From Citrobacter sp. MGH106 (lineage in GTDB: Bacteria; Pseudomonadota; Gammaproteobacteria; Enterobacterales; Enterobacteriaceae): 64,000 nucleotides of DNA. Every line of letters begins with the position of its first letter. Within the stretch, counting starts at the first letter, position 1. Both the position numbers and the translations under genes were made by a program. The notes under the pieces were generated by a model. The model saw nothing but the letters and a program-made list of their open reading frames with translations. It was not told the origin of the DNA and made no database searches. Shown here piece by piece: positions 5,337 to 49,629 of this stretch. The DNA is taken from the NCBI RefSeq assembly GCF_001037495.1, contig NZ_KQ089822.1:1054001-1118000 (forward strand). The letters are read 5' to 3'.

Positions 5337-5819
5337 TTATTTGATGATTAGTGATGGCTTACCGACTTTTAACTGAGCGCCGGGGATATCAATTCCGGCC
5401 TCAATTTGATGCTTTATCGCCAGTTTGTCAGGCTTGATTGTCGTTTCATACTCGACAAAGTCAGGCGGGATAGCGTTGACGTCGGTGATTTCAACGGACT
5501 TTGACGGGGCGCGAACAGTTACCTGATGCAATCCGGCTTTCATGGATTTCTTCCCGGCAGTCTCAAGTGATCTGGCGACATATTCTTTAAGGCTAACCAC
5601 GCGGTTCTCAGATGTTTTTGCGCGATCGATAAGTCTACGAGCCTCTTCCTTGAGAGCCTCGGCATCAGCCAATTCGTTTTTGCAAACAGCAAGAATTTGC
5701 TCGACCTTCGCCTCTAGCTCCCACTCAATTCCATCAAGAGTGTCGGCAATCATTTCAGGCGGAATATCTGAGTCGGTAAGTTTGGCGAAGTCGTTGGCGA
5801 TCTGGTAAAGAGCGGTCAT
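5337..5819 (-). CDS. Gp157-family protein (siphovirus Gp157)
   Basis: 160 aa. The N-terminal half is a long coiled coil (roughly residues 30-85, EWELEAKVEQILAVCKNELA onwards) and the C-terminal half is beta-rich and ends GAQLKVGKPSLIIK. This is the recognisable layout of the Gp157 family, which is usually adjacent to phage recombination genes and was linked to phage-resistance phenotypes in streptococcal phage Sfi21. The start overlaps the recT stop by one base. The molecular function is unknown; co-expression with RecT suggests a recombination accessory. Confidence 0.8.
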   Translation of the reverse strand: MTALYQIANDFAKLTDSDIPPEMIADTLDGIEWELEAKVEQILAVCKNELADAEALKEEARRLIDRAKTSENRVVSLKEYVARSLETAGKKSMKAGLHQVTVRAPSKSVEITDVNAIPPDFVEYETTIKPDKLAIKHQIEAGIDIPGAQLKVGKPSLIIK

Positions 5820-6712
5820 TATGCGGCCTCCTCAAATTTGATTTTGCATTCTGAATAAATGGCTTGAATGTTTTGCTGTAACTTCATCCCGGCAGTGAGT
5901 CGGTACGCATCAGCAAAATGACGCTTCAGATCTGCCATGGTTTCGGCCTGAGCCATTTCTTCACACAGCGATTGCGCCTTATCCATGATTTCTTGCTGCT
6001 GCTTTCTGGCGTCCTCGCGAATATCTTCCTCTGACTTGTGCTGCATTACCGGCTCTTGGAAAACACCTTCATCTTCGTTGATGACGTGGATCGCGTTATC
6101 CAGGCGCTCAGCACGAGGCCAATACTTGCTAGCCCGCTTAACGATGGTCTTACGCGCCATTTCTTCCCAGAAGTTCTTCCATGGTCCATTCTTGGCCTTA
6201 CTGGTAGCTTCAGTTGCTTTGATTTCTGCCAGGCTCATTTCTTCTGTCAGGTAATCGCCGTCAGCAGTTTTAACCGTGCAGTAACCGCCGACTACGTCAC
6301 CGCGATCGCCGAATGCGTTGTATTTGTGCGTGGGTGCGGTATCAAGTCCGTTTGATTCGTACGTGTCGTTTGAATAAACCAGTTTGCACTGGCCCCACTT
6401 AATGGATCCGGTAGACTGCGCAAGATGGAGAAGTCCCATATAGCTGATATCAAGACACACCATGCCGTCGCGTGGGACCAGATAAGCCAGCTTGCTAGCC
6501 GGGTTAAGAGTGATGCCGATTGCCGCTACGTTGATGATGGCGTTCTGTGCGCTGGTAGGGTTTGATAGTGCCGTATTGGCTAAGTAGTCGTTGCGCTGGA
6601 AGTACTGAATAGCGAACTGGCTTTCCTTAGCCCATGTGACTGACTGGTCTGTAACCGCCCCAACAAAGAGCGGCTCCTGTTGTTTAACGAACTCAACAAT
6701 GCTGAGGCTCAT
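5819..6712 (-). CDS. recT: RecT-family single-strand annealing protein
   Basis: 297 aa. It contains the RecT core: NAIINVAAIGITLNPASKLA, YLVPRDGMVCLDISYMGLL, and the WKNFWEEMARKTIVKRASK region. It anneals complementary single strands during phage recombination and replication. Unusually, no RecE/Exo-like nuclease gene lies beside it: upstream are a 97-aa and a 278-aa unknown, downstream is Gp157. It may use host RecBCD or RecJ products, or one of the unknown neighbours may be a partner. The C-terminal ~80 residues are helical and acidic. Confidence 0.93.
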   Translation of the reverse strand: MSLSIVEFVKQQEPLFVGAVTDQSVTWAKESQFAIQYFQRNDYLANTALSNPTSAQNAIINVAAIGITLNPASKLAYLVPRDGMVCLDISYMGLLHLAQSTGSIKWGQCKLVYSNDTYESNGLDTAPTHKYNAFGDRGDVVGGYCTVKTADGDYLTEEMSLAEIKATEATSKAKNGPWKNFWEEMARKTIVKRASKYWPRAERLDNAIHVINEDEGVFQEPVMQHKSEEDIREDARKQQQEIMDKAQSLCEEMAQAETMADLKRHFADAYRLTAGMKLQQNIQAIYSECKIKFEEAA

Positions 6713-6717
6713 TGTTA

Positions 6718-7011
6718 CTATCCCTCATCAATATCTGTTTGGTGATTGGCGATTGTCTCTGCCATGTAGCGAATAAATTCGGCGGCCTTTTCCTGAAACT
6801 CGACGTCATCATCGAACGCCTTTGAAATTGCCTTCTTACTGGCTCCGCGTCGTTGCAGTTCGTCAACGCACAACGACTCCAGCTTGCTCTGTGGCAATCC
6901 TTTCTCAAGGTCATTAGCCAGTTCAGATTCACGCTCTTCTCTGGCTATTTTCTGATAATGGCGCGTCCAGTTCTGCGCCTCGATACGGTCTTGAGCGAGA
7001 TATGCAGCCAT
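6718..7011 (-). CDS. Small recombination-region phage protein, 97 aa, unknown
   Basis: Highly charged helical protein ([20 protein letters not shown], then [18 protein letters not shown]) immediately upstream of recT, five bases apart. Its position and size match accessory genes such as abc/arf in P22, which counter RecBCD, but I cannot confirm homology and leave the symbol blank. If RecT works without a dedicated exonuclease, a RecBCD modulator here would make sense; that is inference. Confidence 0.65.
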
Positions 7012-7097
7012 AATCGGCTCCTGAAATTTGGTTGTGCGCTTCCCGTCTGCGATAGCCGGACGAGTAGGGAAATGGGTGGGGGATATGGCGTATTTGG

Positions 7098-11169: not shown

Positions 11170-11179
11170 TAACAACTAC

Positions 11180-11209
11180 GCATCACAGGATGCGCATTAA
11201 CCATTTTTT
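11180..11209 (+). terminator. tR1-like weak terminator
   Basis: A short hairpin GCATC-ACAG-GATGC and, 10 bases later, a T-run between nutR and cII, the position of lambda tR1. The stem is only 5 bp and the T-run is displaced, so this is tentative. Confidence 0.35.
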
Positions 11210-11230
11210 ACACCAAAGGAATTATCACAG

Positions 11231-11533
11231 ATGGAAAACTCAATTAACCGCAACAAGGTCAATGCCCAGCGCATTTTGTCCTGGTTGCTTAACCAAATCG
11301 CCATGAAAGGTGGCAACAACGTAGCTAAAGAGATCGGCGTTGATAAAGCGCAGATAACCCGCTGGAAAGAAACGTGGCTGCCGAAGATGGCAATGCTGCT
11401 GGCTGTTCTGGAATGGGGTTTCGTTGATGACGATATGGCGCGATTGGCAAGAGAAGTCGCCGCAGTTCTCACAAAGAAAAAATCCCCGACGGTCGAGGTC
11501 GAGGATTCAGATCAAATCACCATGCAATTCTGA
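11231..11533 (+). CDS. cII: CII transcriptional activator
   Basis: 100 aa, clearly lambda CII-like: LLNQIAMKGGNNVAKEIGVD, KAQITRWKETWLPKMAMLLA, VLEWGFVDDDMARLAREVA and QITMQF at the end all align with lambda CII. It is a tetrameric activator of the establishment promoters for cI and int, unstable through FtsH. A matching CIII could not be recognised in the PL operon, and I could not find a clean TTGC-N6-TTGC site, so its targets are not located. Confidence 0.92.
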   Translation: MENSINRNKVNAQRILSWLLNQIAMKGGNNVAKEIGVDKAQITRWKETWLPKMAMLLAVLEWGFVDDDMARLAREVAAVLTKKKSPTVEVEDSDQITMQF

Positions 11534-11566
11534 GTCGAATAACTGGATCAATTCACAGGAGTAATT

Positions 11567-11971
11567 ATGCCTGGACTAAATGCACAAGTAAACCATGACA
11601 TTCGAGCCGGTGACCGATTCGAAACAGTCTACCCATTCATTTTTGTTTGTACGGATTACCAACTCTACAACGGCGATGTTCACACGGACGAGAGGTGGAT
11701 TGGCGGATGCAGGAAGACGTCAGAACCAGCTGATTGTGGATATGGCGAACAGACAGTTTATACGGCCGACAAAGAAGGAAAGAGAATCCTAGAGGTTCTT
11801 TCCGTTGCCGATATGCCAGGCCAATGGCAGAGACGAATCATTTATGCCTGCCATCTGATTGACCCCGATGGGCGAGAGAGGAAGGGCAGGAAAGCATACA
11901 CGGTAACAGAGGCCAGATTCCTCAAGATGACATCTGGTTACTTCACAGATTACGGACTGGAGGATGATTGA
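11567..11971 (+). CDS. Phage protein of unknown function, 134 aa
   Basis: Beta-rich protein beginning MPGLNAQVNHDIRAGDRFET, with GEQTVYTADKEGKRILEVLS and a C-terminal GYFTDYGLEDD. It lies between cII and the O-like gene, with GGAG upstream and a TGATG overlap with the next start. Not recognised. Confidence 0.65.
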   Translation: MPGLNAQVNHDIRAGDRFETVYPFIFVCTDYQLYNGDVHTDERWIGGCRKTSEPADCGYGEQTVYTADKEGKRILEVLSVADMPGQWQRRIIYACHLIDPDGRERKGRKAYTVTEARFLKMTSGYFTDYGLEDD

Positions 11972-12858
11972 TGGCCCGTTCAAGAAATATCAAACCAGGC
12001 TTTTTCACAAACGATGAGCTGGCCGAATGCTCTCCATATGCACGCCTACTTTTCGCCGGGCTGTGGACAATTGCAGACAAAGAAGGGCGGCTGGATGATC
12101 GCCCTAAAAAGGTTAAAGCAATGGTACTGCCTTTCGATGATGTGGACTGCAATGATCTGCTTCAGCAGCTTCACAGCCACAAATTCATCAACCGATATCA
12201 GGTAAATGGCGATTCATACATCCAAATAAATAACTGGAAGAAGCACCAGAACCCTCACTGCAAAGAAGCTGCTAGTGAGATACCAGAACCAGTAGAGAAC
12301 AATGACAGCACCGGACAAGAACAGTGCAAGGACGACAAAGATGAAGACAAGAAGGATACTGACTCACCTCAAGTCATTGAAAATAATGAAGCACAAGAAA
12401 AGCACCATGCAAGCACAGTACAAGAACCAGTAGAGAACAATTTAAATCCTGCTGATTCCCTTAACCTGATTCCTGATTCCCTCATCCCTCATACTGATTC
12501 CCTTTCTAACACCCAAGCCGCTGACGCGACTTGTGAGGGGGCTGAGGCTGATGTCCATAAAATTTCAAGTCGCTATGCATTCGAAGGAAATATCGTTCGG
12601 TTAAACCACAAGGACTACGAAGCCTGGAAACGCCTGTATCCGAACATTGACCTGAAGTACGAACTGGAAAAGCTGGATATCGAATTTAGCCATGAGAAGC
12701 CAAAGAACTGGTTTATCACTGCTAGCCAGAAACTTAGCTACCAAAACAAGCAGGCGGCACAACGCCCTGTCAGGAAAGTTGCAAACGGGCTTCAGTCTGA
12801 AGGTTTCGCAACGAAGGACTACGGAAAAACTGAAATGCCTGCATGGGCTCAGGAGTGA
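11971..12858 (+). CDS. O-like phage replication initiator
   Basis: 295 aa. The N-terminal ~95 residues (MARSRNIKPGFFTNDELAEC ... INNWKKHQNPHC) are a winged-helix type found in phage O/DnaT-like replication proteins. A long hydrophilic linker (about residues 95-190, EPVENN repeats and a DDKDEDKKD tract) leads to a C-terminal domain (RLNHKDYEAWKRLYPNIDLK). By analogy with lambda O, the N-terminus binds origin iterons encoded in the gene itself and the C-terminus recruits the helicase loader encoded next. The ATG at 11971 is preferred over TTG at 11968, with GGAGGA upstream. Confidence 0.8.
   Translation: MARSRNIKPGFFTNDELAECSPYARLLFAGLWTIADKEGRLDDRPKKVKAMVLPFDDVDCNDLLQQLHSHKFINRYQVNGDSYIQINNWKKHQNPHCKEAASEIPEPVENNDSTGQEQCKDDKDEDKKDTDSPQVIENNEAQEKHHASTVQEPVENNLNPADSLNLIPDSLIPHTDSLSNTQAADATCEGAEADVHKISSRYAFEGNIVRLNHKDYEAWKRLYPNIDLKYELEKLDIEFSHEKPKNWFITASQKLSYQNKQAAQRPVRKVANGLQSEGFATKDYGKTEMPAWAQE
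12452..12503. other. Candidate phage replication origin (iterons in the O-like gene)
   Basis: Four direct copies of CTGATTCC[CT] start at 12452, 12466, 12473 and 12494, at spacings that are multiples of 7 bp. They encode the DSL...IPDSL...TDSL linker. AT-rich DNA flanks them on the left. An 18-bp repeat, GAACCAGTAGAGAACAAT, occurs at 12286 and 12424. Iterons inside the initiator gene are the lambdoid pattern. Confidence 0.6.
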
Positions 12859-12860
12859 TC

Positions 12861-13715
12861 ATGACACTGGAAGAAAAAATATCGAGCCTCGAAAAGCGCA
12901 TTGCCGAGCTGAGCGAGCCTCCCGCGCCGATTGAAGATACTGACATCGTTATCAGCACGGAGAGTTGCGAAAAGCATGGTGATTTTGAGTGCAGGACGAG
13001 AATTTACACGGGAAGCATCATCAAAATTCCGCCAAGGCCAAGCATTTGCCCGGGCTGCATGCGCGATGAGCTTATCAAGCTGCAAGCTGAGAAGATCCGC
13101 ATAGATGAGGATTCTCGCAAGCGAAACGTTGAGCGGCTACTGGATAGCCTAGACATCCCAAACCGATTCCTGTCCTGCACCCTGCAGAACTACGAACCGG
13201 TGAACGATGACGCTAAGCGAGCATTGAAGGTTTGCCAGGCATATGCAAGCAGATGGCCTGAGCGTTTGCAGAAGGGAGGGGGTCTGGTTATGTGCGGAAA
13301 GCCAGGGACCGGCAAGAACCACCTAGCGCTGGCTATAGCTCGGCATGCAATCACTGAGCATCAAAGCTCGGCTGTATTCACCACCGCTCTGAAAATTGCC
13401 AGAGAGTACAAATCAACCTGGTCGAAGGGCTCAACACGTACTGAAGACGATGTGATCCGCTACTTCACCAAACCAGATCTGCTGATTATCGACGAGGTAG
13501 GGGTCCAGTTCGGTAGTGACGCTGAGAAGCTGATCATGTTCGAAATCATTAACACCCGCTACGAGCGCATGAAGCCAACCATCCTGATTAGCAACCAGAC
13601 CAAAGAAGAACTTTCGGCATTCATCGGTGAACGCGTCATAGACCGCATGAGCGACGGCGGCGGATGCACTCTGTCATTCACCTGGGATTCATACCGCTCG
13701 AAGGGGGCCGCATGA
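12861..13715 (+). CDS. DnaC-like helicase loader (AAA+ ATPase)
   Basis: 284 aa. Walker A GKPGTGKNH (about residues 146-154) and Walker B LLIIDEVG, with SNQTKEELSAFIGERVIDRM containing sensor and arginine-finger features of DnaC/IstB-type loaders. The N-terminal region has a coiled coil, then Cys36, His39, Cys44, Cys63 and Cys66, a plausible zinc site. It would load the host DnaB helicase at the phage origin and so takes the place of lambda P. The ATG at 12861 follows CAGGAGTGATC. It lies two bases after the O-like gene. Confidence 0.88.
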   Translation: MTLEEKISSLEKRIAELSEPPAPIEDTDIVISTESCEKHGDFECRTRIYTGSIIKIPPRPSICPGCMRDELIKLQAEKIRIDEDSRKRNVERLLDSLDIPNRFLSCTLQNYEPVNDDAKRALKVCQAYASRWPERLQKGGGLVMCGKPGTGKNHLALAIARHAITEHQSSAVFTTALKIAREYKSTWSKGSTRTEDDVIRYFTKPDLLIIDEVGVQFGSDAEKLIMFEIINTRYERMKPTILISNQTKEELSAFIGERVIDRMSDGGGCTLSFTWDSYRSKGAA

Positions 13716-19787: not shown

Positions 19788-19794
19788 CATTCAG

Positions 19795-19869
19795 GGTCAG
19801 AAGCACAGAGGTTGTGCGTTCGGCTGTTAACCGATTGGTCGAAGGTTCGAATCCTTCCTGTCCCGCCAA
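19795..19869 (+). tRNA. Phage tRNA-Asn (anticodon GUU)
   Basis: 75 nt with encoded CCA. Acceptor GGGTCAG/CTGTCCC (one T-T mismatch), D-stem GCAC/GTGC with loop AGAGGTT, anticodon stem TTCGG/CCGAT (outer pair mismatched) with loop CTGTTAA giving GTT, T-arm GAAGG-TTCGAAT-CCTTC, discriminator G. Two mismatches leave some doubt about activity. It sits at the start of the late transcript, where several lambdoid phages carry tRNAs, and would be made with late genes. Confidence 0.8.
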
Positions 19870-40772: not shown

Positions 40773-42005
40773 ATGGCTGAAGTAACAGTTAGCACAGCCG
40801 TCCCCTCTGTCACGTTTTCCGATACCGGCATTGCCGTTCCTGATGAGATAGACATTCTCAATGGGCGTTTAACTGACCTTGACACCGCTATGGGCGGCGG
40901 GATGAGTAAGAGCCTTACCACGCCTCAGGGCCAGATCGCCATGAGCGACACGGCTATCATCGGCGACAAGAACGACAATCTGGCATGGCTGGTTAATCAG
41001 ATTAACCCTGACTTTGCTGAAGGCCGTATGCAGGATGCGATCGGACAGATTTACTTCATTGACCGGATTGCGGCGATAGGGACAACGGTAACGGCCACGG
41101 CTACCGGTCTGGTGGGTACGGTAATCCCGGCTAACAGCATCGCTCAGGACGCCAGCGGCTATCTCTATTACTCACTAGCTGATGCGGTTATCCCGGCATC
41201 CGGTGCTGTTGATATCGTTTTCCAGAATCAAGCAGCAGGGCCGATCGCCTGTCCTATTGGCGCACTTAATACCATCTACCGCGCCATCTCAGGCTGGTCT
41301 GGCATCACCAATGTTACCGCTGGCGTGCTCGGCAACGAGGTGGAGAGCCGGGCTAACTTTGAATACCGTCGTAAGCAGTCGGTCGCCGGTAACGCGAATA
41401 ATCAGCTCGGCGCAGTTTATGCGAACGTCCTCGCGGTACCTGGAGTGACTGATGCATACGTGACGCAGAACAACACCGGCCTGACAGTGGAGAAGGGCTT
41501 CACAGACTTTGAGCTTGAACCTCATTCACTCTACGTCAGCGTGTACGGAGGAGCATCGGCAGACATCGCAAAGGCGATCTGGCAGAAGCTCCCTCCGGGC
41601 CCGTCAATGGTCGGCAACACGAGCTATACCGTTGTCGATGACGTTAACTACGTCCAACCCTATCCAGAGTACGAAATCAAATGGCAAACGCCGTCGGCGG
41701 TCAGCGTTTACTTCAAAGTAGAGCTTGCCAATAACAACGCGCTGCCAGGCGATATCGTAAACAGAGTTCGCACCGCCGTTCTCAGCGCATTCAATGGCGA
41801 GGACGGCGGCACTCGGGCAAGGATTGGATCGACTATCTACGCCGGTCGCTACTATGCCGGTGTTCAGGCTATCGACAGCGATAACGTGGACATCTTCAGC
41901 ATCACTATCAGCAGAGACGGCACCACTTACCAGACCTCTGCGTCCTTTGGCATCGATGAGGTGCCAACGCTTGATGCAACCAACATCTCGGTGACACTGG
42001 CATGA
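40773..42005 (+). CDS. Baseplate J-like protein
   Basis: 410 aa. SVTFSDTGIAVPDEIDILNG, the NEVESRANFEYRRKQSV motif (analogue of E-D.D-RRR in J proteins), and VNRVRTAVLSAFNGEDGGTR. Forms the wedge arms of the contractile baseplate that connect hub and sheath. ATGA-type overlap with the next gene. Confidence 0.9.
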   Translation: MAEVTVSTAVPSVTFSDTGIAVPDEIDILNGRLTDLDTAMGGGMSKSLTTPQGQIAMSDTAIIGDKNDNLAWLVNQINPDFAEGRMQDAIGQIYFIDRIAAIGTTVTATATGLVGTVIPANSIAQDASGYLYYSLADAVIPASGAVDIVFQNQAAGPIACPIGALNTIYRAISGWSGITNVTAGVLGNEVESRANFEYRRKQSVAGNANNQLGAVYANVLAVPGVTDAYVTQNNTGLTVEKGFTDFELEPHSLYVSVYGGASADIAKAIWQKLPPGPSMVGNTSYTVVDDVNYVQPYPEYEIKWQTPSAVSVYFKVELANNNALPGDIVNRVRTAVLSAFNGEDGGTRARIGSTIYAGRYYAGVQAIDSDNVDIFSITISRDGTTYQTSASFGIDEVPTLDATNISVTLA

Positions 42006-42589
42006 TAAACGTCGCGGATACCATCCTGACGCAGTATGCCGACAGCCCGAAACTTAAATCCCTGATTTACTCGCTCAATGAAGCCGTAGGTATAGAAGGT
42101 TTTCTCGATGATTTCTATGACGTGATCTGGAATATCGAGACGGCAGATACCTACGGACTGGACGTGTGGGGGAAGATCGTGGTTGTCGGCAGGCAGCTGA
42201 CGGTAACAGAGAACAAGATTTACTTCGGCTTCAACGAGGCATCGTCAGACCCAGCACTCGTTGATGACCCGCAGCCATTTAATCATGCGCCTTTCTATTC
42301 AGGCGAGCTTTTAACCTCAACCGTAACCCTCACGAATGACGTTTACCGCAAATTGATCATGATGAAGGCTGCGGCCAATATCTCTGATTGCACCATTCCA
42401 AATCTGAATAAGTTGCTGATGTTTATGTTCGGAACAAGTGGTAAATGCTATGTCAGAAATGATGGTGAGATGGTCATGAGTTACGTGTTTGAGTTCCCTC
42501 TGTCAACGGCGGAGTTAGCCATTGTTCAAAGCTCAGGTGCGCTTCCTGCCCCGATTGGGGTAACAGTTAATATCGTTCAGCAGGTATGA
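42002..42589 (+). CDS. DUF2612 baseplate protein
   Basis: 195 aa. ADTILTQYADSPKLKSLIYS, IWNIETADTYGLDVWGKIVV and IYFGFNEASSDPALVDDPQP, typical of DUF2612 (gpI-like) proteins that link wedge and fibres. Overlaps the J-like gene by 4 bp and is followed at once by the fibre gene. Confidence 0.85.
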   Translation: MINVADTILTQYADSPKLKSLIYSLNEAVGIEGFLDDFYDVIWNIETADTYGLDVWGKIVVVGRQLTVTENKIYFGFNEASSDPALVDDPQPFNHAPFYSGELLTSTVTLTNDVYRKLIMMKAAANISDCTIPNLNKLLMFMFGTSGKCYVRNDGEMVMSYVFEFPLSTAELAIVQSSGALPAPIGVTVNIVQQV

Positions 42590-42590
42590 C

Positions 42591-43826
42591 ATGAACTCTT
42601 CTGATATTCCTTCTCGCCAGATTAAAGCATTTGCCATTAACGGTCTCAAAAACGCTATAGCCGTTGATTCAAGCACTACAACAGATAATTCAGGAACAGC
42701 CACCTTTGATAAAGGGTTCCCTCCAATAACAATGCAACCATTAAGTGCAGGAGGTATACCGCCATCAGGGAAAGATATGAATGGCATTTTATATACAATC
42801 ACACTTAAACAGCAATGGGCAGACTCAGGTGGGGCTTATCCATTCAACCAATCATTTTCTACATCGATTGGTGGTTATCCTCAGGGGTCTGTAATTCCTG
42901 CAACAAATATGTCTGGACAATGGCTCAATCTTTTAGATGGTAACGCTACTAATCCAGAAGCAACAGATTCCTCAACAACTGGATGGGTTCCATTAAGTTT
43001 CTATGGCTCAACAAGCATATCAGGACTATCTGGAGTAAGCATTACCCTTACATCACTTCAGGCAGCTAGGGACATACTTGTCCTTGCAGGATCATTAACA
43101 GCCAACATTAATATAATTCTTCCTTCGTGGGTTAAAATATGGAGGGTTATTAATAATTGCTCTGGTAATTTCCAGGTCACACTGAAAACACTTACCGGAA
43201 GTGGAATTCAATGCCCTCAGAAAAAGACGACTCTTATTCGCGGTGATGGTTCAAATATTTTAAGTGACGTATCCATTCAGAGAGGCTGTCAAACATTCAC
43301 CACCAATGGGTCATTTACTGTTCCTGATGGGGTTACCACTATTTACGTCTCTGGTAGCGCAGGAGGTGGTGGCGGTGGAGGTGGGTATTCATCATCTAAT
43401 AGTGGGCAGGGTGGTGGGGCTGGACAGTCAATAATGAAACAGCCTTATCAGGTCAGCCCTGGCGATGTGATTGCGATAACAATAGGATCGACTGGTTCTG
43501 CTGGCGGAGTTGGGGCGGCAGGTGGTCAGGGTGGGAACACAGTAATTGGAGCGCTGGCCACTCTAAATGGAGGTGGAGGAGGTAATCCAGGTGCGGCATC
43601 TGAAGGTGGAAAATCAGCAGGCCTACCAGGAGGGAATGGTGGAATAGCTGGCGAGGATGCAATTGGTTCTGTTCCTGGTTCTGGTGGTTCTTGTCTTATG
43701 GGACCTGGCGGTAGTCGTCGCGCAGCTGCTGGAATCGCTGGAATTAATGGCGGTGGAGGAGCTGGTGGATATGTGAATGCTCCTGGCGGTACGGGTGGGA
43801 CTGGGATTGTCATTATTGAATACTAA
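42591..43826 (+). CDS. Tail fibre with glycine-rich adhesin C-terminus
   Basis: 411 aa. The N-terminal ~140 residues are a baseplate-attachment domain common to enteric prophage fibres (PSRQIKAFAINGLKNAIAVD; FDKGFPPITMQPLSAGGIPP). From about residue 235 a receptor domain has many glycine-rich loops (SAGGGGGGGGYSSSNSGQGG; GGTGGTGIVIIEY), the design of Gp38-type polyglycine-sandwich adhesins that bind outer-membrane proteins. No fibre chaperone follows. AT content rises compared with the baseplate genes. Confidence 0.85.
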   Translation: MNSSDIPSRQIKAFAINGLKNAIAVDSSTTTDNSGTATFDKGFPPITMQPLSAGGIPPSGKDMNGILYTITLKQQWADSGGAYPFNQSFSTSIGGYPQGSVIPATNMSGQWLNLLDGNATNPEATDSSTTGWVPLSFYGSTSISGLSGVSITLTSLQAARDILVLAGSLTANINIILPSWVKIWRVINNCSGNFQVTLKTLTGSGIQCPQKKTTLIRGDGSNILSDVSIQRGCQTFTTNGSFTVPDGVTTIYVSGSAGGGGGGGGYSSSNSGQGGGAGQSIMKQPYQVSPGDVIAITIGSTGSAGGVGAAGGQGGNTVIGALATLNGGGGGNPGAASEGGKSAGLPGGNGGIAGEDAIGSVPGSGGSCLMGPGGSRRAAAGIAGINGGGGAGGYVNAPGGTGGTGIVIIEY

Positions 43827-43836
43827 CTGGTGAACT

Positions 43837-46425
43837 ATGAGTATCTCTGAAACTATTAAAGCGCAAAAATATGCGGCAATCGCAGAAGTATCAGCAGCCG
43901 AATGCGCCATATATGCGAACGTACTAAAAGGTGCACCAAACTATGCAGCAGAGGCTGCCGCCTCTGCCTCTGCTGCTGAACAGTCAGCATCTTCGTCTGC
44001 AGCGAGCTCATCTAATGCACAAGAGTATGCCAGTTCTGCATCCTCTTCGGCTCTTAGTGCCTTTGAATCAGCACAAACAGCTGGAAATGCAGCTGCGGCT
44101 GCTGTAGGGCAGTGCATCCGTGTTCCAACCGGGGAGTTAACAAGTCCATTACCTGTAGCCGCTGACAGGAAACAATCTGCGCTAGTTTTTGATGCTGATG
44201 GAAATTCTTCCATTAAACCCCTCTCTGGATTTGCTTTGCTTGATAGCGATGGAAAAATACCTGCATCTCAAATTCCATCTATTGCGATATCACATATATT
44301 TGTTGTATCAAGAGAATCCGAAATGCTAGCTCTTGATGCTTATACTGGGGATGTGGCGAAAAGGACTGATCTTGGCTTTTCATTAATGTTGAGTCAGACG
44401 CCAGCCAGCACTTTAGGTAACTGGGTAAGACTTAACGATGACGTTTTGGCAGAACTGGCTCAGCCAACTGGCTCAGATCTGATTGGCTCGCCTTACGGAA
44501 CTCTTACTGACGTCGCAGAAGATGTCCAAAGTAAAGTTAATCAGATAGACCTGTCTGGCGCTAAAGGTTTGGCACTGGTCGGCGTGTGTCCAGATGTTTC
44601 TACCTTGAGAACTTTATCCGTTCCGGCAGGCAAAAAGGTAATGTTGCTGGGCTACTATTCGTCAAAGCCAGGAGTTGGTGGAGGGCTTCTTTACGCTTCT
44701 TCTGATACATCATTATCAGATGATGGTGTAAGGGTTTTTGTAACCAATGATGGAACAAGACTGATTAGAGAAACAAATGGCGACCTGTATGCGTCCTGGG
44801 CAGGGGCAATCGGTGACTGGAACGGCACGACAGGAACTGATAATAAGGCAGCAATTGAAAGACTCATTGCTGCGGCAGGAACTTCTTATCGTTGGGTTAT
44901 AGACCTGAATAATGTTGGAGTTAGCTCTGTAGTAATTAATGGAAGGAACGGATGGAAGGGACACATAGAGGGAAGTGTGTTCAATATCTCGGCTAAGCCA
45001 TCTTCATCTGCCGTAGACAGAAGGTCACAAGATGGAGGTGTCTTTCCAACCTTTAAAATAACAAACTCAGATAACTGGAAATTAACTGGTGGTTATATTG
45101 ATAACCGGTATCGAGAGGCTTTCTACATAGAAACATGCAACGGGTTTGTATGGTCCTGTGATGTAAAAGGAAGTGGAATTAACGACAATCTAAATGGAAA
45201 CTATTTAAGATATTGTAGTAATTTTAAAATTGAAAACGCCACAATCTATAAGTCTGGAGCAATTCCCATAACGGGTTATTATTCATGGGTTCAAGCTTTG
45301 TTGTTGTGGGATTGTCATTTTTTCGGTATCACTAACATCATATCCAATGAGAATGCAGGGAATGGCATCTACATCGGTAGTAACGTGACGGATTATTATA
45401 TTGACGGTTTTCAGACGAATAAAAATGCAATGTCTGGGATTCAGTTGGCGTGGTCTAGTTTTGGCACCTTCCCGCAACGAGGTAGCATTTCAAATGGAGT
45501 GATTTCTGGCAACAGAGCTGATGGTATTGATATTAACAACACCATGGCTAGTGGTATCGTTAGGATTGATCTGTCAGTAAATAACATAACGCATAGCAAT
45601 AATGGTTATAACACGGACGGAACAGTTACTGCTGATGGGTCAGGACTAGGAACATTTATAAATGTTTCCCACTGGGGCGTGACAGGATGCAGTGCGACTT
45701 CACCTGCCAGAGCTGGTTTGTTTATTAGTTCTTGCGAAAATTTTCGCGTTGATAATAGCTTTGTTAATAAACAGCAAACTTCAAATAGCGAAAATCACGG
45801 TTTCTATATTGAAAACTCAAACAACTTCGATGTGGATATTGATGTTATTGTAGATTCATCAAATACCGGCATGTACAGCATTAGAACGTATGGGGTAATT
45901 GAAAATGGTACATTCAGAGGTAGATACACAGGCAGAGCAGTCATAGGAACAGATTCTACGTATATAAACTGCAATGCAGAAAATGCAGTTTTTATATCTC
46001 CAACTACCGTTAATGTTCTTTTCCCATTCAGAAAATGCAACATAGTTTGTTCTGGAACAAATGCAGCTGGTATTTATTCATCCGTAAATGGGTGTCGTTT
46101 TGTATCAAATGCTGGGCATGGAGGGGTTGTATATGGCAGTGGAATTTCAATTGATAACTCTGAAATTACAGGAACTGATGCCGGGCTGTGGGTTAATGAC
46201 GGATTTAACAGGATAAGTGCGAGAGGAAACAAAATTTCAGGAGGAACAAGCTCTGGACTTAGGATTAATACAGGAAGCAAGCATATCATTGAAAACAACA
46301 GTCTATCTTCAACAGGTGGAAACAGTGTCATCATAAGTAACGCTACTGCCGTTACCTACATTGGTAATGATGACTCAACAAGCCCAACAAACTTTTCCGG
46401 AACGGCGTTCACTTTGAATAATTAA
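43837..46425 (+). CDS. Tailspike with right-handed beta-helix
   Basis: 862 aa. The N-terminal ~90 residues are helical and Ala/Ser-rich (EAAASASAAEQSASSSAASS), then an adaptor (VFDADGNSSIKPLSGFALLD; IPASQIPSIAISHIFVV), a head-like module (SVPAGKKVMLLGYYSSKPGV) and a region ending DNKAAIERLIAAAG that introduces a pectate-lyase-like parallel beta-helix (repeated short N-N-G-I rungs, e.g. NENAGNGIYIGSNVTDYYID). Such spikes bind and often cleave O-antigen or capsule. Strongly AT-rich, suggesting recent exchange. Followed by inverted repeats and the polymerase cassette. Confidence 0.85.
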   Translation: MSISETIKAQKYAAIAEVSAAECAIYANVLKGAPNYAAEAAASASAAEQSASSSAASSSNAQEYASSASSSALSAFESAQTAGNAAAAAVGQCIRVPTGELTSPLPVAADRKQSALVFDADGNSSIKPLSGFALLDSDGKIPASQIPSIAISHIFVVSRESEMLALDAYTGDVAKRTDLGFSLMLSQTPASTLGNWVRLNDDVLAELAQPTGSDLIGSPYGTLTDVAEDVQSKVNQIDLSGAKGLALVGVCPDVSTLRTLSVPAGKKVMLLGYYSSKPGVGGGLLYASSDTSLSDDGVRVFVTNDGTRLIRETNGDLYASWAGAIGDWNGTTGTDNKAAIERLIAAAGTSYRWVIDLNNVGVSSVVINGRNGWKGHIEGSVFNISAKPSSSAVDRRSQDGGVFPTFKITNSDNWKLTGGYIDNRYREAFYIETCNGFVWSCDVKGSGINDNLNGNYLRYCSNFKIENATIYKSGAIPITGYYSWVQALLLWDCHFFGITNIISNENAGNGIYIGSNVTDYYIDGFQTNKNAMSGIQLAWSSFGTFPQRGSISNGVISGNRADGIDINNTMASGIVRIDLSVNNITHSNNGYNTDGTVTADGSGLGTFINVSHWGVTGCSATSPARAGLFISSCENFRVDNSFVNKQQTSNSENHGFYIENSNNFDVDIDVIVDSSNTGMYSIRTYGVIENGTFRGRYTGRAVIGTDSTYINCNAENAVFISPTTVNVLFPFRKCNIVCSGTNAAGIYSSVNGCRFVSNAGHGGVVYGSGISIDNSEITGTDAGLWVNDGFNRISARGNKISGGTSSGLRINTGSKHIIENNSLSSTGGNSVIISNATAVTYIGNDDSTSPTNFSGTAFTLNN

Positions 46426-46494: not shown

Positions 46495-47733
46495 TCATCT
46501 TTCAGTAAATGACTTTCTCCTGCCACGAGACACAAACGCCACAATATTAATTAAAATATATAAAGAAAACGCAATAAATAGATGTTCGGGCAACAAGTAA
46601 CCCATGCTGACTGGTATTATTCCGACGCCGCAAGAAAAAATAAATGGGATAAAAACATAAATGTTATTGTCTTTTAATAACATGTTGTGGAAGTATTTTG
46701 CAATTACTCCTTTAACGGCTCCAGAAATAGCAAGGTAAAGTGGTGTATATAACCCAAAGTCAGCATAGTATTCCCCATAGCCAAATGCAGGGGCGCCCTG
46801 GTTCCTGTAGAATTCTATCGGATATAGTACCTTTGCTATGTAAAGATAGCCAAAATCTTCTGGTTTTGACGGTAGCAATGCACGTGGAATTCTTGAGTAG
46901 ATCTCAGATTCTAACATAAGCCTACCGTACTCAAAACTCCAGTCTTTAGTCATCAAAAGAACTGCGTTTCTTGTGTAATCTGAATAATAAGCCATATTAA
47001 TAAACACATTATTGTTGTTATCATAAGTGTAAATGAAAAATAGTGAAACAAGCGCAGCAAGAAACCCACACGCAATCAAAAGATATTTGATTTTTATTTC
47101 TTTCCTCAATACATAAGACTGAAACATCAAGTATGATACAAATGCTATAATTAATGGACCTTTATTTCCGTGTATCAGTATGAGTAAAACATTCGATATA
47201 ATAATTATTGATGAGTATAATGTTTTTTTGTTTAATAAGTAAAATGAAAAGAGTAGAGCTATCTGAGACAAAACAATTGATGTGTAAAAATATACACCAT
47301 ACCCAGTTCGTGTTTGTTCATAAATTCTCCTAGGCTGAAGCAATAGATCTTTAAATTCCAAAATAACTGGCAAGTAAAACACAATAGACATAATTGTAAA
47401 CAGGAACGCAAAAAAAGAATACCTTCCAATTTTTATGTTAACTACGCAATCTTTTTTATATGGTGGTATTTTTATGTCTTGACTATAAAGGTAAAATACA
47501 GTAAAGAATAATATGCTTATCAGATAGCATGTATAGAAGAATATATATCCCACTGTGTTTATCGAGTCTTTTGTTATTGATAAATACACAATCTCAAAAA
47601 CATATAATATTGGAAATGTAATAAGCAAGTATGGTGTCATTATGTTTATTACTTTCCTTTCCTTCCTTAAACACAGGAAGTATATAAAAATAACAAATAA
47701 AATAGACATAGCAACAAATGTGAATGCCACCAT
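46495..47733 (-). CDS. Wzy-like O-antigen polymerase (serotype-conversion candidate)
   Basis: 412-aa polytopic membrane protein with about ten to twelve hydrophobic helices and a long hydrophilic periplasmic loop at about residues 235-325 (TYDNNNNVFINMAYYSDYTR; IPRALLPSKPEDFGYLYIAK), with GYGEYYADFGLYTPLY before the last helices. This is the architecture and motif of oligosaccharide repeat unit polymerases. AT-rich and rich in ATA/AAT codons, unlike phage core genes. It lies on the minus strand where P22-type phages keep gtr genes, and its start overlaps the stop of the upstream membrane gene (TAATG). It likely polymerises host O-units with a new linkage; substrate unknown. No gene name assigned because Wzy sequences are not comparable across serotypes. 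Confidence 0.78.
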   Translation of the reverse strand: MVAFTFVAMSILFVIFIYFLCLRKERKVINIMTPYLLITFPILYVFEIVYLSITKDSINTVGYIFFYTCYLISILFFTVFYLYSQDIKIPPYKKDCVVNIKIGRYSFFAFLFTIMSIVFYLPVILEFKDLLLQPRRIYEQTRTGYGVYFYTSIVLSQIALLFSFYLLNKKTLYSSIIIISNVLLILIHGNKGPLIIAFVSYLMFQSYVLRKEIKIKYLLIACGFLAALVSLFFIYTYDNNNNVFINMAYYSDYTRNAVLLMTKDWSFEYGRLMLESEIYSRIPRALLPSKPEDFGYLYIAKVLYPIEFYRNQGAPAFGYGEYYADFGLYTPLYLAISGAVKGVIAKYFHNMLLKDNNIYVFIPFIFSCGVGIIPVSMGYLLPEHLFIAFSLYILINIVAFVSRGRRKSFTER

Positions 47734-48137
47734 TAAAAAAACACTCCAAGTATTAACAATACAAAAATAAATATACTTATGAGTATTAATTTTGATGTGC
47801 TTAACTTACGAGCTAAATACACGGCATCTGGCATTTCACTGTTGAAATCTTTCACAATACAATATCCCTTTATGATAACTACAGAAGTTGCACATATTAC
47901 AGTTAACCAATTTATTGTAAAATATAGATACAATTGATTCAAGGGCAATCTTACTGAAATAAATGCATAAAAATTTTCCGCATACAATTTTATTGAATGA
48001 TCAGCAAAAGTATAAATCACTGGTATCGGTAAGGTGAAGATCTTTATAAAAAGCGAACTATAGTGACAAATTTCCATATAAACAATGACATATGCGAAAA
48101 AAGATAGCATTACGCCATCAACAATACGCGATCCCAT
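47733..48137 (-). CDS. Small polytopic membrane protein, candidate polymerase inhibitor
   Basis: 134 aa if started at ATG 48137 (MGSRIVDGVMLSFFAYVIVY); an ATG at 48110 is another option. Three to four transmembrane helices; the last is SKLILISIFIFVLLILGVFF at the C-terminus. It is the first gene of a two-gene cassette and its stop overlaps the polymerase ATG, so both are translated together. Phages D3 and epsilon15 pair a new Wzy with a small inhibitor of the host Wzy (Iap); the same role here is inference from pairing, size and topology. Reading upstream to 48203 runs into the int terminator hairpin and is rejected. Confidence 0.65.
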   Translation of the reverse strand: MGSRIVDGVMLSFFAYVIVYMEICHYSSLFIKIFTLPIPVIYTFADHSIKLYAENFYAFISVRLPLNQLYLYFTINWLTVICATSVVIIKGYCIVKDFNSEMPDAVYLARKLSTSKLILISIFIFVLLILGVFF

Positions 48138-48147
48138 AAGATGATTA

Positions 48148-48212
48148 GTGTCCGGTGTTTTGAGACAAAAACGGGACACACAAAGCTTTGCATCGGTTTG
48201 CAAGGCTTTGTG
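48148..48212 (-). terminator. Two adjacent hairpins downstream of int
   Basis: Hairpin one pairs CACAAAGC..TTGCA with TGCAAAGCTTTGTG (48179-48212). Hairpin two pairs GTGTCC.GT.TTTTG with CAAAAC.GGACAC (48148-48179). On the minus strand they follow the int stop by ~10 bp and include a T5 run. They probably end the int message before the membrane cassette. Confidence 0.55.
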
Positions 48213-48220
48213 CTGCTTCC

Positions 48221-49390
48221 CTATGACACCTTCTCATCAAGCCAGTCAGCCCACCACTGCATCATCTCGCGGCGCGTGTCGAGATAGGCGGCATGGTTAT
48301 AAACAGATCTGGTACCACCGCTGACGTGGGCCAGCTGCATTTCTATAGCATCACTGTTCCAGTGCTTTTCATTCAGAACTGTACTGAACTGGTGCCTGAA
48401 CCCGTGACCGCTTGTCTGTCCTTCATAGCCAATGCTACGAATTACGCCAAGAACAGCGTTCTCGCTGATTGGCTTCTTCCTGTCGTTTCTGCCGGGGAAG
48501 CAAAGCGAATACTGACCGGTTATATGCTGCAATACTTTGAATAGCTCAACGACCTGATCTGACATAGGAACGATGTGGAGCTTTCTTCCTTTCATTACCG
48601 ATGGATCGATGCTGATTATCCTGTTCTCGTAATCTATTCCTGACCATACCAGCGATCTCATCTCGACGGTTCGCATGGCTGTATAGTGCAATACCTGCGC
48701 GGCAATCTTCATTACTATCCAACCACCGTACGCATTAATAGACCGCTGGAATTCATGTATACGATGCATAGGAAGGAAAGGGTAGTTGTTCTTGCGATAT
48801 CCTTTCATGGCCCCAGAAAGGTCTGGGGATGGATTGTATTTTGCTCTTCCGGTTACGATCGCATAACTGAAAACCTCACCGCATCTTCGCCTCGCTTTAT
48901 CAGCGCGTTCCATTGCGCCCCTGTCCTCGAACAGCCTGATGACCTTCAACAGAATCATTGGCTCGACTTCCTCCATGCGTAAATGGCCGATGATCGGAAG
49001 TATGTCATCCGTGAACATACTCATCATCTCGTCAGCATATCCTTTCGACCACACCTTTGATTTGTGAGCATGCCATTCGTGGAAAATGTCACCGAACGAA
49101 TCAGCTACAGCCTCTTTCTCTTTCTTCTTTATAGCCTGCTTCTGCTCGGCAGGGTCAACCCCGTTAAGCAGCTTCATTTTTGCTTCAGACTGTTTTGCCC
49201 TGGCTTCAGTGAGGGTGATCTCCTGATAAGGGCCGATTACCAGCGTCTTTTCTTTTCCGTCGAACCGGTACCGCATACGCCAGACCTTTTTACCAGACGG
49301 CGGCACGAACAAAAACAGGCCGCCGGAGTCAGCAAGACGGTACGACTTGTCGGTGGGTTTGGCGGCGTCGATCTGCTTAACGGTAAGCAT
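48221..49390 (-). CDS. int: Tyrosine integrase, IntS-like
   Basis: 389 aa. MLTVKQIDAAKPTDKSYRLA, then LADSGGLFLFVPPSGKKVWR and IGPYQEITLTEARAK match the N-terminal arm-binding domain of the P4/IntS class. The catalytic domain has an arginine in YTAMRTVEMRSLVW, HGFRHQFST (H-x-x-R) and the nucleophile tyrosine in SVYNHAAYLDTR. It recombines attP with the argW 3' end. Its start lies ~165 bp from the attachment core, with arm-type repeats between. Confidence 0.94.
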   Translation of the reverse strand: MLTVKQIDAAKPTDKSYRLADSGGLFLFVPPSGKKVWRMRYRFDGKEKTLVIGPYQEITLTEARAKQSEAKMKLLNGVDPAEQKQAIKKKEKEAVADSFGDIFHEWHAHKSKVWSKGYADEMMSMFTDDILPIIGHLRMEEVEPMILLKVIRLFEDRGAMERADKARRRCGEVFSYAIVTGRAKYNPSPDLSGAMKGYRKNNYPFLPMHRIHEFQRSINAYGGWIVMKIAAQVLHYTAMRTVEMRSLVWSGIDYENRIISIDPSVMKGRKLHIVPMSDQVVELFKVLQHITGQYSLCFPGRNDRKKPISENAVLGVIRSIGYEGQTSGHGFRHQFSTVLNEKHWNSDAIEMQLAHVSGGTRSVYNHAAYLDTRREMMQWWADWLDEKVS

Positions 49391-49554: not shown

Positions 49555-49569
49555 TGGTGTCCCCTGCAG
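49555..49569. repeat. Right attachment core (3' end of argW)
   Basis: TGGTGTCCCCTGCAG, identical to 2026-2040. It is the tRNA 3' end, so the complete tRNA is kept after integration. Confidence 0.92.
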
Positions 49570-49629
49570 GAATCGAACCTGCAACTAGCCCTTAGGAGGG
49601 GCTCGTTATATCCATTTAACTAAGGGGAC
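49555..49629 (-). tRNA. argW: tRNA-Arg (anticodon CCU), argW
   Basis: 75 nt with encoded CCA. Acceptor GTCCCCT/AGGGGAC, anticodon loop CTCCTAA giving CCT, T-arm GCAGG-TTCGATT-CCTGC. It reads the rare AGG codon. Its position beside yfdC and next to a CPS-53-type integrase identifies argW. The prophage sits at its 3' side and restores the full gene. Confidence 0.95.

What the first reader, a model, noticed from the sequence alone, without database searches (positions are those of the whole stretch)
46495..48137. Two-gene O-antigen polymerase cassette: possible serotype switch
A Wzy-like polymerase and a small polytopic membrane protein are joined by a TAATG overlap on the minus strand between the tailspike and int, where P22-type phages carry gtr genes. 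Both are AT-rich relative to the phage core. In phages D3 and epsilon15 a new Wzy-beta is paired with a small inhibitor (Iap) of the host Wzy, which changes O-antigen linkage and blocks rebinding by the same tailspike. I infer the same logic here: the small protein would silence the host polymerase and this Wzy would replace it. The small protein has no recognisable family to me and may be a new inhibitor.
Basis: partly seen in the sequence, partly recalled or inferred. Interest (0 to 1): 0.78.

Follow-up and report, generated by a model that had tools for sequence, protein, structure and literature searches.

The report
Phage-borne O-antigen polymerase switch cassette
A virus living in this enterobacterium carries a spare sugar-chain polymerase beside its own host-recognition spike, probably to rewire the coat sugar that the spike recognises, and relics beside a related polymerase gene in Salmonella suggest that this gene came from such a virus.

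Summary
The cassette is real: a 412-aa Wzy-like gene (46495-47733, minus) overlapping a small ORF by TAATG, 31% GC in a 50% GC prophage, between tailspike and int. It is 47-49% identical to Wzy(B) of Salmonella groups A/B1/D1, the unlinked "rfc" alpha(1-2) polymerase, and to copies on other phage contigs that face a tailspike with the same receptor-binding domain. The host's own O-antigen locus resembles Salmonella's galactose-initiated type and holds an intact Wzy matching the alpha(1-6) wzy remnant of group B1. So the lysogen most likely switches, or mixes in, the polymerisation linkage, as epsilon15 does. The small "polytopic protein" is conserved only in its last 40 residues, a single-TM peptide before Wzy in all five ectopic copies with upstream DNA held; an inhibitor role is plausible, not shown. 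Unexpected: the Salmonella rfc locus still carries this peptide and a decayed tailspike fragment, so that polymerase most likely came from such a phage; my searches found no printed statement of this. Linkage, expression and inhibition remain untested.

The parts
46495..47733 (-). wzy: O-antigen polymerase of the Salmonella Rfc/Wzy(B) family, 412 aa
   Evidence: 47-49% identity over 84-98% of its length to three Salmonella records; 47-49% to five homologues and 38% to a sixth, in-cluster one; ten hydropathy peaks, two of them overlapping
47733..47855 (-). conserved single-TM peptide of about 40 aa (possible GTG start at 47855), overlapping wzy by TAATG
   Evidence: similar to short ORFs upstream of wzy in L009, L018, L019: scores 60, 58, 67; 0 of 2000 shuffles each. 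AAGGGA 9 nt before the GTG
47856..48137 (-). upstream in-frame extension (94 codons) that makes the 134-aa ORF; no relatives found; translation unproven
   Evidence: no relatives; one chance-like hit with three stops; open by chance in 66 of 20,000; terminator-like hairpin inside
43837..46425 (+). tailspike, convergent with wzy, 69 bp away
   Evidence: phrog_7992 tail spike 3e-82; Beta_helix just over cut-off
44536..46425 (+). receptor-binding part of the tailspike, shared with L018, L019, L010 and large Salmonella phages such as kuttervirus GG32
   Evidence: 62% and 60% to L018 and L019, 61% over 629 aa to L010, 61% over the whole query to 22 Salmonella-phage records
46426..46494 (.). gap between the convergent genes; 10-bp inverted repeat GCGCCATTGT/ACAATGGCGC with a 20-nt loop
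   Evidence: the terminator scan did not list it (its loop limit is 8)
48154..48210 (.). 57-bp conserved DNA after int, left edge of the exchanged block
   Evidence: 91% to L019 4981-5037
48221..49390 (-). integrase of the tRNA-Arg prophage
   Evidence: Pfam integrase domains; 90% DNA identity to L018 over 1230 bp that include it
49555..49629 (-). tRNA-Arg(CCT), attachment site; att core 49555-49569 repeated at 2026-2040

Best explanation
A temperate phage carries a serotype-conversion cassette next to its tailspike. In the lysogen the phage Wzy, a member of the Salmonella Rfc/Wzy(B) family, polymerises the host's own Und-PP-linked O units with a different linkage (most likely alpha(1-2), as Rfc does) in place of, or beside, the resident alpha(1-6)-type Wzy of the rfb locus. 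The changed polymer is no longer, or less, recognised by the co-inherited tailspike, which protects the lysogen and its progeny phage from re-adsorption. The 40-aa single-TM peptide encoded just ahead of Wzy most likely helps the switch by blocking the resident Wzy, as Iap does in epsilon15. Shown here: homology, gene order, co-occurrence with one tailspike domain, an intact resident Wzy of another family. Inferred: activity, linkage, receptor change. Positional support only: the inhibitor role.
For: Wzy 47-49% identical to Salmonella genes, one annotated O-antigen polymerase and next to thrS; Reeves 2013 (PMC3715488, passages and one section) describes the rfc-locus wzy(B) as alpha(1-2). Host rfb: WbaP 90%, WbaN 75%, WbaU 70% to the cluster of a Salmonella-like genome (G351), so probably the same Man-Rha-Gal backbone; the host Wzy (L014:388-1563) matches the gap between wbaV and wbaU there in two collinear pieces (36.2 and 33.1 bits; best of 100 shuffles 23.9; DNA 83% over 54 bp), which is where that paper puts the remnant of the alpha(1-6) wzy(D3). 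Same layout in epsilon15. Spike receptor-binding part and wzy occur together in three virion types, whereas an E. coli prophage at tRNA-Arg with tail DNA 85% identical and a spike N-terminus 46% identical (222 aa) has an unrelated spike remainder and a GtrA-family gene, a GT2 gene and a DUF6311 gene instead of wzy. 0 of 23 Salmonella-phage records with this spike domain carry the Wzy, as no phage record does.
Against: No experiment or expression data. At 48% identity the linkage could differ. Promoter-like sites are not in excess (13 against 9.5, sd 3.6). The host O unit differs from Salmonella's (dideoxyhexose synthase 43%, wbaV-like 27%, wzx without match, an extra acetyltransferase and a 402-aa protein). 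Phage and host Wzy are not wholly without similarity (25% over 116 aa, E 0.012 for the pair; alignment score 107 against a best of 95 in 200 shuffles). The peptide has no significant similarity to the epsilon15 inhibitor or Wzz ends and is intact in G351, where the resident wzy is a remnant. The receptor of this spike domain is not known to me.
Confidence: 0.72

Rival explanations
1. The Wzy works, but the small peptide is its partner (folding, stability, Wzz docking, translational coupling), not an inhibitor; the switch, if any, is by competition and the lysogen makes mixed linkages.
For: The peptide precedes Wzy in all five ectopic copies whose upstream DNA is held (window, L009, L018, L019, L025) and stays an intact ORF in G351, where the resident wzy is a remnant. 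No significant similarity to Iap.
Against: No such peptide was found at the one in-cluster homologue of this Wzy family (L026, 38%; E limit 0.01), so Wzy of this family need not have it; but that is one case. Between the two Salmonella loci the peptide differs in 3 of 43 codons, all non-synonymous, against 9 non-synonymous and 9 synonymous of 408 in wzy (Fisher p 0.10 for the non-synonymous share): at most a weak hint of relaxed constraint.
Confidence: 0.35
2. Passenger: the cassette is silent or without effect and the lysogen's O antigen is unchanged.
For: No clear promoter; conversion genes of prophages are often phase-varied or silent (general knowledge).
Against: Both frames are open, with ribosome-binding-like sites, and the Wzy keeps invariant blocks such as HGNKGP, YSDYTRNAVL and GAPAFGYGE with its relatives.
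Confidence: 0.2
3. A gtr-type glucosylation module, as in other prophages of this slot.
For: Same genomic slot; L018 keeps a truncated GtrA there.
Against: No GtrA or glycosyltransferase match for either protein in Pfam, PHROGs or NCBIfam; sequence kinship is to Wzy.
Confidence: 0.01

Closest known systems
Salmonella wzy(B) at the rfc locus (groups A, B1, D1)
   Same: Same protein family (48-49% identity), a related peptide ORF ahead of it, a related tailspike (as a decayed fragment) behind it.
   Different: In Salmonella it is a chromosomal piece between direct repeats next to thrS; here it sits in a prophage beside an intact tailspike.
Salmonella phage epsilon15 conversion module (wzy-beta, alpha-polymerase inhibitor)
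   Same: Tailspike plus, convergent wzy minus, small membrane-protein ORF directly upstream of wzy.
   Different: Proteins not similar in sequence (Wzy E 0.49; peptide: 168, 279 and 668 of 2000 shuffles as good for window, L019, L009). Its O-acetylation inhibitors (PMC3715488) were not looked for here.
Pseudomonas phage D3 wzy-beta and Iap
   Same: Phage-borne replacement polymerase; Iap is a 31-aa peptide that mimics the second TM of Wzz (PMC12004945, passages).
   Different: No significant similarity of the peptide to the C-end of the host Wzz. The D3 Iap itself was not compared: it is not annotated in the stretch fetched.
Phage-encoded Wzy of Acinetobacter capsule (K127 and others)
   Same: A prophage-borne polymerase that changes a surface polysaccharide (titles and abstract starts only).
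   Different: Capsule, not O antigen; not compared in sequence.
gtr modules of P22-type and tRNA-Arg prophages; phage Kapi1
   Same: Same slot; Kapi1 is a P22-like phage at argW that uses and alters the O antigen (PMC8787464, passages).
   Different: gtr modules add sugar branches; this one would change the linkage between repeat units.

Membership tests
Wzy O-antigen polymerase, Rfc/Wzy(B) family | Significant full-length similarity to a known member | tested here: met
   E 2e-114, 49% over 95%; NCBIfam TIGR04370 only at E 0.14, 11.2 bits against a cut-off of 40
Wzy O-antigen polymerase, Rfc/Wzy(B) family | About 10-14 TM segments (PMC12004945, passage) | tested here: inconclusive
Wzy O-antigen polymerase, Rfc/Wzy(B) family | Polymerises O units through an alpha(1-2) linkage | not testable with these tools
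   needs LPS analysis or an enzyme assay
Two-gene linkage-switching cassette (epsilon15/D3 type) | Phage-borne Wzy of another family than an intact resident Wzy | tested here: met
   host Wzy L014:388-1563 intact, 391 aa; pair 23 bits, E 0.012
Two-gene linkage-switching cassette (epsilon15/D3 type) | Small membrane peptide gene next to wzy on the same strand | tested here: met
   TAATG overlap; similar ORFs in L009, L018, L019, L025
Two-gene linkage-switching cassette (epsilon15/D3 type) | Peptide inhibits the resident Wzy | not testable with these tools
   bench only
Alpha-polymerase inhibitor of epsilon15 | Sequence similarity to it | tested here: not met
   168 of 2000 shuffles reach the score for the window peptide
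Iap (D3) | Similarity to the second TM of Wzz | tested here: not met
   last 50 residues of host Wzz: window 1148, L009 57, L018 1322, L019 105 of 2000 shuffles reach the score
GtrA/GtrB/GtrC | GtrA or glycosyltransferase domain | tested here: not met
   no such match

The most novel reading that the evidence does not exclude
The alpha(1-2) polymerase that defines Salmonella groups A, B1 and D1 is a stranded phage conversion cassette: wzy, a 40-aa peptide and a tailspike, of which wzy, the peptide ORF and a decayed spike fragment remain. The window is the same step caught alive in another genus: an intact alpha(1-6)-type locus plus a prophage with the alpha(1-2)-type Wzy. The peptide is a new kind of polymerase inhibitor that made the switch complete before the old wzy decayed, and the tailspike domain, also present on kuttervirus GG32 without an assigned receptor in what I saw, reads the alpha(1-6) form.
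Probability: 0.4. Interest if true: 0.87.

Novelty: new variant of a known kind. Interest (0 to 1): 0.75.

Why it matters
Reeves et al. 2013 conclude that groups B1 and D1 arose by gain of an alpha(1-2) wzy outside the main cluster; the passages I read name no source. A tailspike fragment and a shared peptide beside that wzy point to a phage, and the window shows the deduced intermediate state in another bacterium. It makes an old question testable: was a very common Salmonella O-antigen linkage a phage's receptor-masking device? It also pairs a spike domain with a polymerase, which gives a way to predict receptors of orphan spikes, and offers a new family of very small membrane peptides tied to ectopic polymerases.

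Tried and rejected
Profile libraries gave nothing usable for either protein; Tetraspanin (E 0.22), phrog_37565 (0.073) and TIGR04370 (0.14) are chance-level or far below cut-off. tblastn against 50,697 phage records: none for either protein, nor with the Salmonella Bredeney copy; the peptide protein: none of 72,556 plasmid records. Single-sequence scans of viral contigs found none; only alignment queries found two (same two; a DNA pattern for the peptide gave the same two contigs). Genome-contig scans gave none, although a Salmonella-like genome with the gene turned up elsewhere (G351): these scans depend on short patterns and their negatives are weak. The only hit for the 134-aa protein among 197 relatives besides the own genome (G130, E 1.6e-4) has three stops inside and is taken as chance. 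PDB searches: no match for Wzy or tailspike. I considered that O27 conversion by a phage explains the Bredeney copy; Reeves 2013 attributes O27 to an in-cluster wzy, so I dropped that. GtrA for the small protein: rejected. The window's own spike does not match the Salmonella fragment L009 significantly (E 0.60) but does match L025 (E 8e-7). One line at the end was a dummy comparison and is not used.

Full report
Observation. GC is 31.1% against 50.2% for prophage 2041-46425. The prophage runs from a 15-bp att core at 2026 to its copy at 49555 in the 3' end of tRNA-Arg(CCT). It has a tail sheath (phrog_205, 7e-102) and a baseplate J protein, so it is a contractile-tailed phage, not P22-type. 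The flanking host DNA is about 81% identical to Salmonella and to E. coli; the host is another enterobacterium that I could not name.

The larger gene. Profile libraries are blind to it, but tblastn on 72,556 plasmid records gives three hits, 47-49% identical. By gene content these records look like chromosome or prophage fragments rather than plasmids. One holds thrS, infC, rplT, pheST and the gene annotated O-antigen polymerase, the place of the rfc locus (wzy beside thrS in PMC12074656, passages). The other two carry the taxid of serovar Bredeney and hold wzy facing a tailspike; their two spikes are identical. Two further phage contigs came from an alignment scan of IMG/VR. In the protein matrix of seven, the window copy is 47-49% identical to the five Salmonella and phage copies and 38% to an in-cluster gene of another genus (L026); those five are 84-98% identical to one another. 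In the tree, midpoint-rooted for drawing, the phage copies L018, L019 and L010 group together (91/93); the window copy and L026 have long branches, so only the separation of these two from the other five is firm (100/99). Among 392 genomes of the family 3 have the gene: the own one, G351 and G244; among 197 relatives, with the window protein as query, only the own one.

The tailspike linkage. In the window, L018, L019 and L010 the wzy is convergent with a tailspike and 29-69 bp from it. Over its last 629 residues the window spike is 62% and 60% identical to those of L018 and L019 and 61% to L010, while the N-terminal parts differ: L019 has the P22 head-binding domain (5e-66) and P22-like ejection proteins; L018 lies beside a tail protein related to the central tail fibre J. 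So one spike domain plus wzy occurs on three virion types (L010 and L019 are 95.6-97.0% identical over 6.9 kb, and count as one). The same spike domain is in 34 phage records at E up to 1e-5: 22 Salmonella-phage records (17 differently named phages) and one record labelled Enterococcus phage over the whole query at 61%, one Salmonella record over 12%, and 10 Klebsiella-phage records, of which the six shown match over about 17%. None of the 50,697 phage records has the Wzy. In the one of these that I opened, kuttervirus GG32, no wzy is annotated within 6 kb on either side. An E. coli prophage at tRNA-Arg (L012) has DNA 85% identical to window 41189-42850 and a spike whose first 222 residues are 46% identical to ours, with no alignment beyond that; beside it lie a GtrA-family gene, yfdH and a DUF6311 gene. 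Spike domain and conversion genes thus change together in this comparison.

The host. The own O-antigen locus (L013, L014), about 0.37 Mb from the prophage Wzy, has rml, ddh, a dideoxyhexose synthase, wzx, transferases, manCB, wbaP, then gnd, ugd, wzz. Against the cluster of G351, a genome 98.7% identical over 9.2 kb to the Salmonella fragment L009: WbaP 90%, WbaN 75%, WbaU 70%, manC 83%, manB 76%, rml and ddh 77-96%, dideoxyhexose synthase 43%, wbaV-like 27%; wzx, the acetyltransferase, a 402-aa protein and the Wzy have no counterpart (gnd, ugd and wzz lie outside the stretch of G351 fetched; names wbaU, wbaN, wbaV follow gene order and PMC3715488). Two pieces of the host's 391-aa Wzy match the gap between wbaV and wbaU (53% over 34 aa, 45% over 33 aa, DNA 83% over 54 bp; best of 100 shuffles 23.9 bits against 36.2 and 33.1). 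Reeves et al. 2013 (passages and section 11) put the remnant of the alpha(1-6) wzy(D3) between wbaV and wbaU in group B1. The host thus carries an intact relative of the alpha(1-6) polymerase and the prophage a relative of the alpha(1-2) one, the state which that paper deduces for the step from B2 to B1. The linkages in the window's host are inferred, not measured. Phage and host Wzy show weak similarity at most (25% over 116 aa, E 0.012; score 107, best of 200 shuffles 95).

The small protein. Only the last 40 residues have relatives: 39-42-aa ORFs directly upstream of wzy in L009, L018 and L019 (0 of 2000 shuffles reach the window scores 60, 58, 67) and in L025. A GTG at 47855 with AAGGGA ahead of it would give a 40-aa product. 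L010 and L011 begin inside wzy and could not be checked. L026, the in-cluster relative, shows no match at E 0.01. A terminator-like hairpin at 48119-48103 (3 such sites found, 0.9 expected, sd 1.0) lies inside the longer frame, after int, which speaks for the short form. In epsilon15 the inhibitor gene has the same place, but no significant similarity; the ends of the host Wzz are not significantly similar either (of eight comparisons the lowest shuffle counts were 57 and 74 of 2000). Inhibitor and partner roles both remain open; I lean to inhibitor by position and by its absence at the in-cluster gene.

Salmonella rfc. By blastn L009 is homologous to the P22-like contig L019 from upstream of the peptide ORF through wzy into the 3' part of the tailspike (11172-12863 against 5375-7093, 75.7%). 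Translated, the piece after wzy gives tailspike C-terminal stretches with stops and frame changes (E 1.6e-16 to L018's spike, 3e-14 to L019's; the window's spike only 0.60). G351 has the same (L019 spike residues 650-740, E 6e-20; window spike E 8e-7; peptide 93% identical to L009's), between direct repeats of 162 bp at 99.4%. Charity et al. 2025 (PMC12074656, passages) describe 113-bp repeats and excision of this wzy segment in S. [quoted passage not shown] A virion gene fragment beside the chromosomal wzy is best explained by arrival with a phage. Only two Salmonella loci were examined. Searches that could have shown a printed statement of this (11 papers listed, 10 of 22 listed; also on phage P27, 0) and the passages read gave none; Wang et al. 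2002, the key older paper, is not held and was not read, nor was Collins and Hackett 1991.

Receptor. Sorensen et al. 2021 (PMC8432352, passages) list receptors for three GG32 spike types (TSP1-1, TSP2-1, TSP3-1); the 1109-aa spike that holds our domain is by gene order and length (my recall) the fourth, TSP4, for which the table seen gives no receptor in GG32. I predict the alpha(1-6) polymer. That is inference.

Verdict. A real, probable linkage-switching cassette of a known kind in a new version: a Wzy family not seen in the phage records searched, a new peptide family, tied to one spike domain, and with a trail to the chromosomal polymerase of Salmonella.

Noticed in passing
L009 10497-12865; L025 6446-8489: The Salmonella rfc locus holds a 42-aa peptide ORF before wzy and a decayed tailspike fragment after it; in L025 162-bp direct repeats flank the block.
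   Followed up: yes
L018 1-5319: Prophage contig with an integrase 90% identical to the window's, a truncated gtrA, an acyltransferase-3/SGNH (OafA-like) gene and the wzy in a row: several kinds of O-antigen modification in one block.
   Followed up: partly
L019 671-6793: P22-like contig with GtrA and GT2 genes and a third membrane-type ORF, an IS-like transposase ORF, and the wzy: both conversion types in one phage.
   Followed up: partly
L027 4549-7878 (phage GG32): A kuttervirus spike whose receptor-binding part is 61% identical to the window's tailspike; no receptor for it in the paper passages seen.
   Followed up: partly
CP101362.1, OX345037.1, OX345447.1: PLSDB 'plasmids' that look like chromosome or prophage fragments of Salmonella.
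   Followed up: no
L026 7941-9143: An in-cluster Wzy of the same family (38%) in another enterobacterial genus, a possible source family for the phage gene.
   Followed up: partly
window 19794-19868: tRNA-Asn(GTT) inside the prophage.
   Followed up: no
G000 C2:503430 and four places on C1: Five Wzz-domain matches over the cut-off in the own genome, one on a second contig of 751 kb.
   Followed up: no
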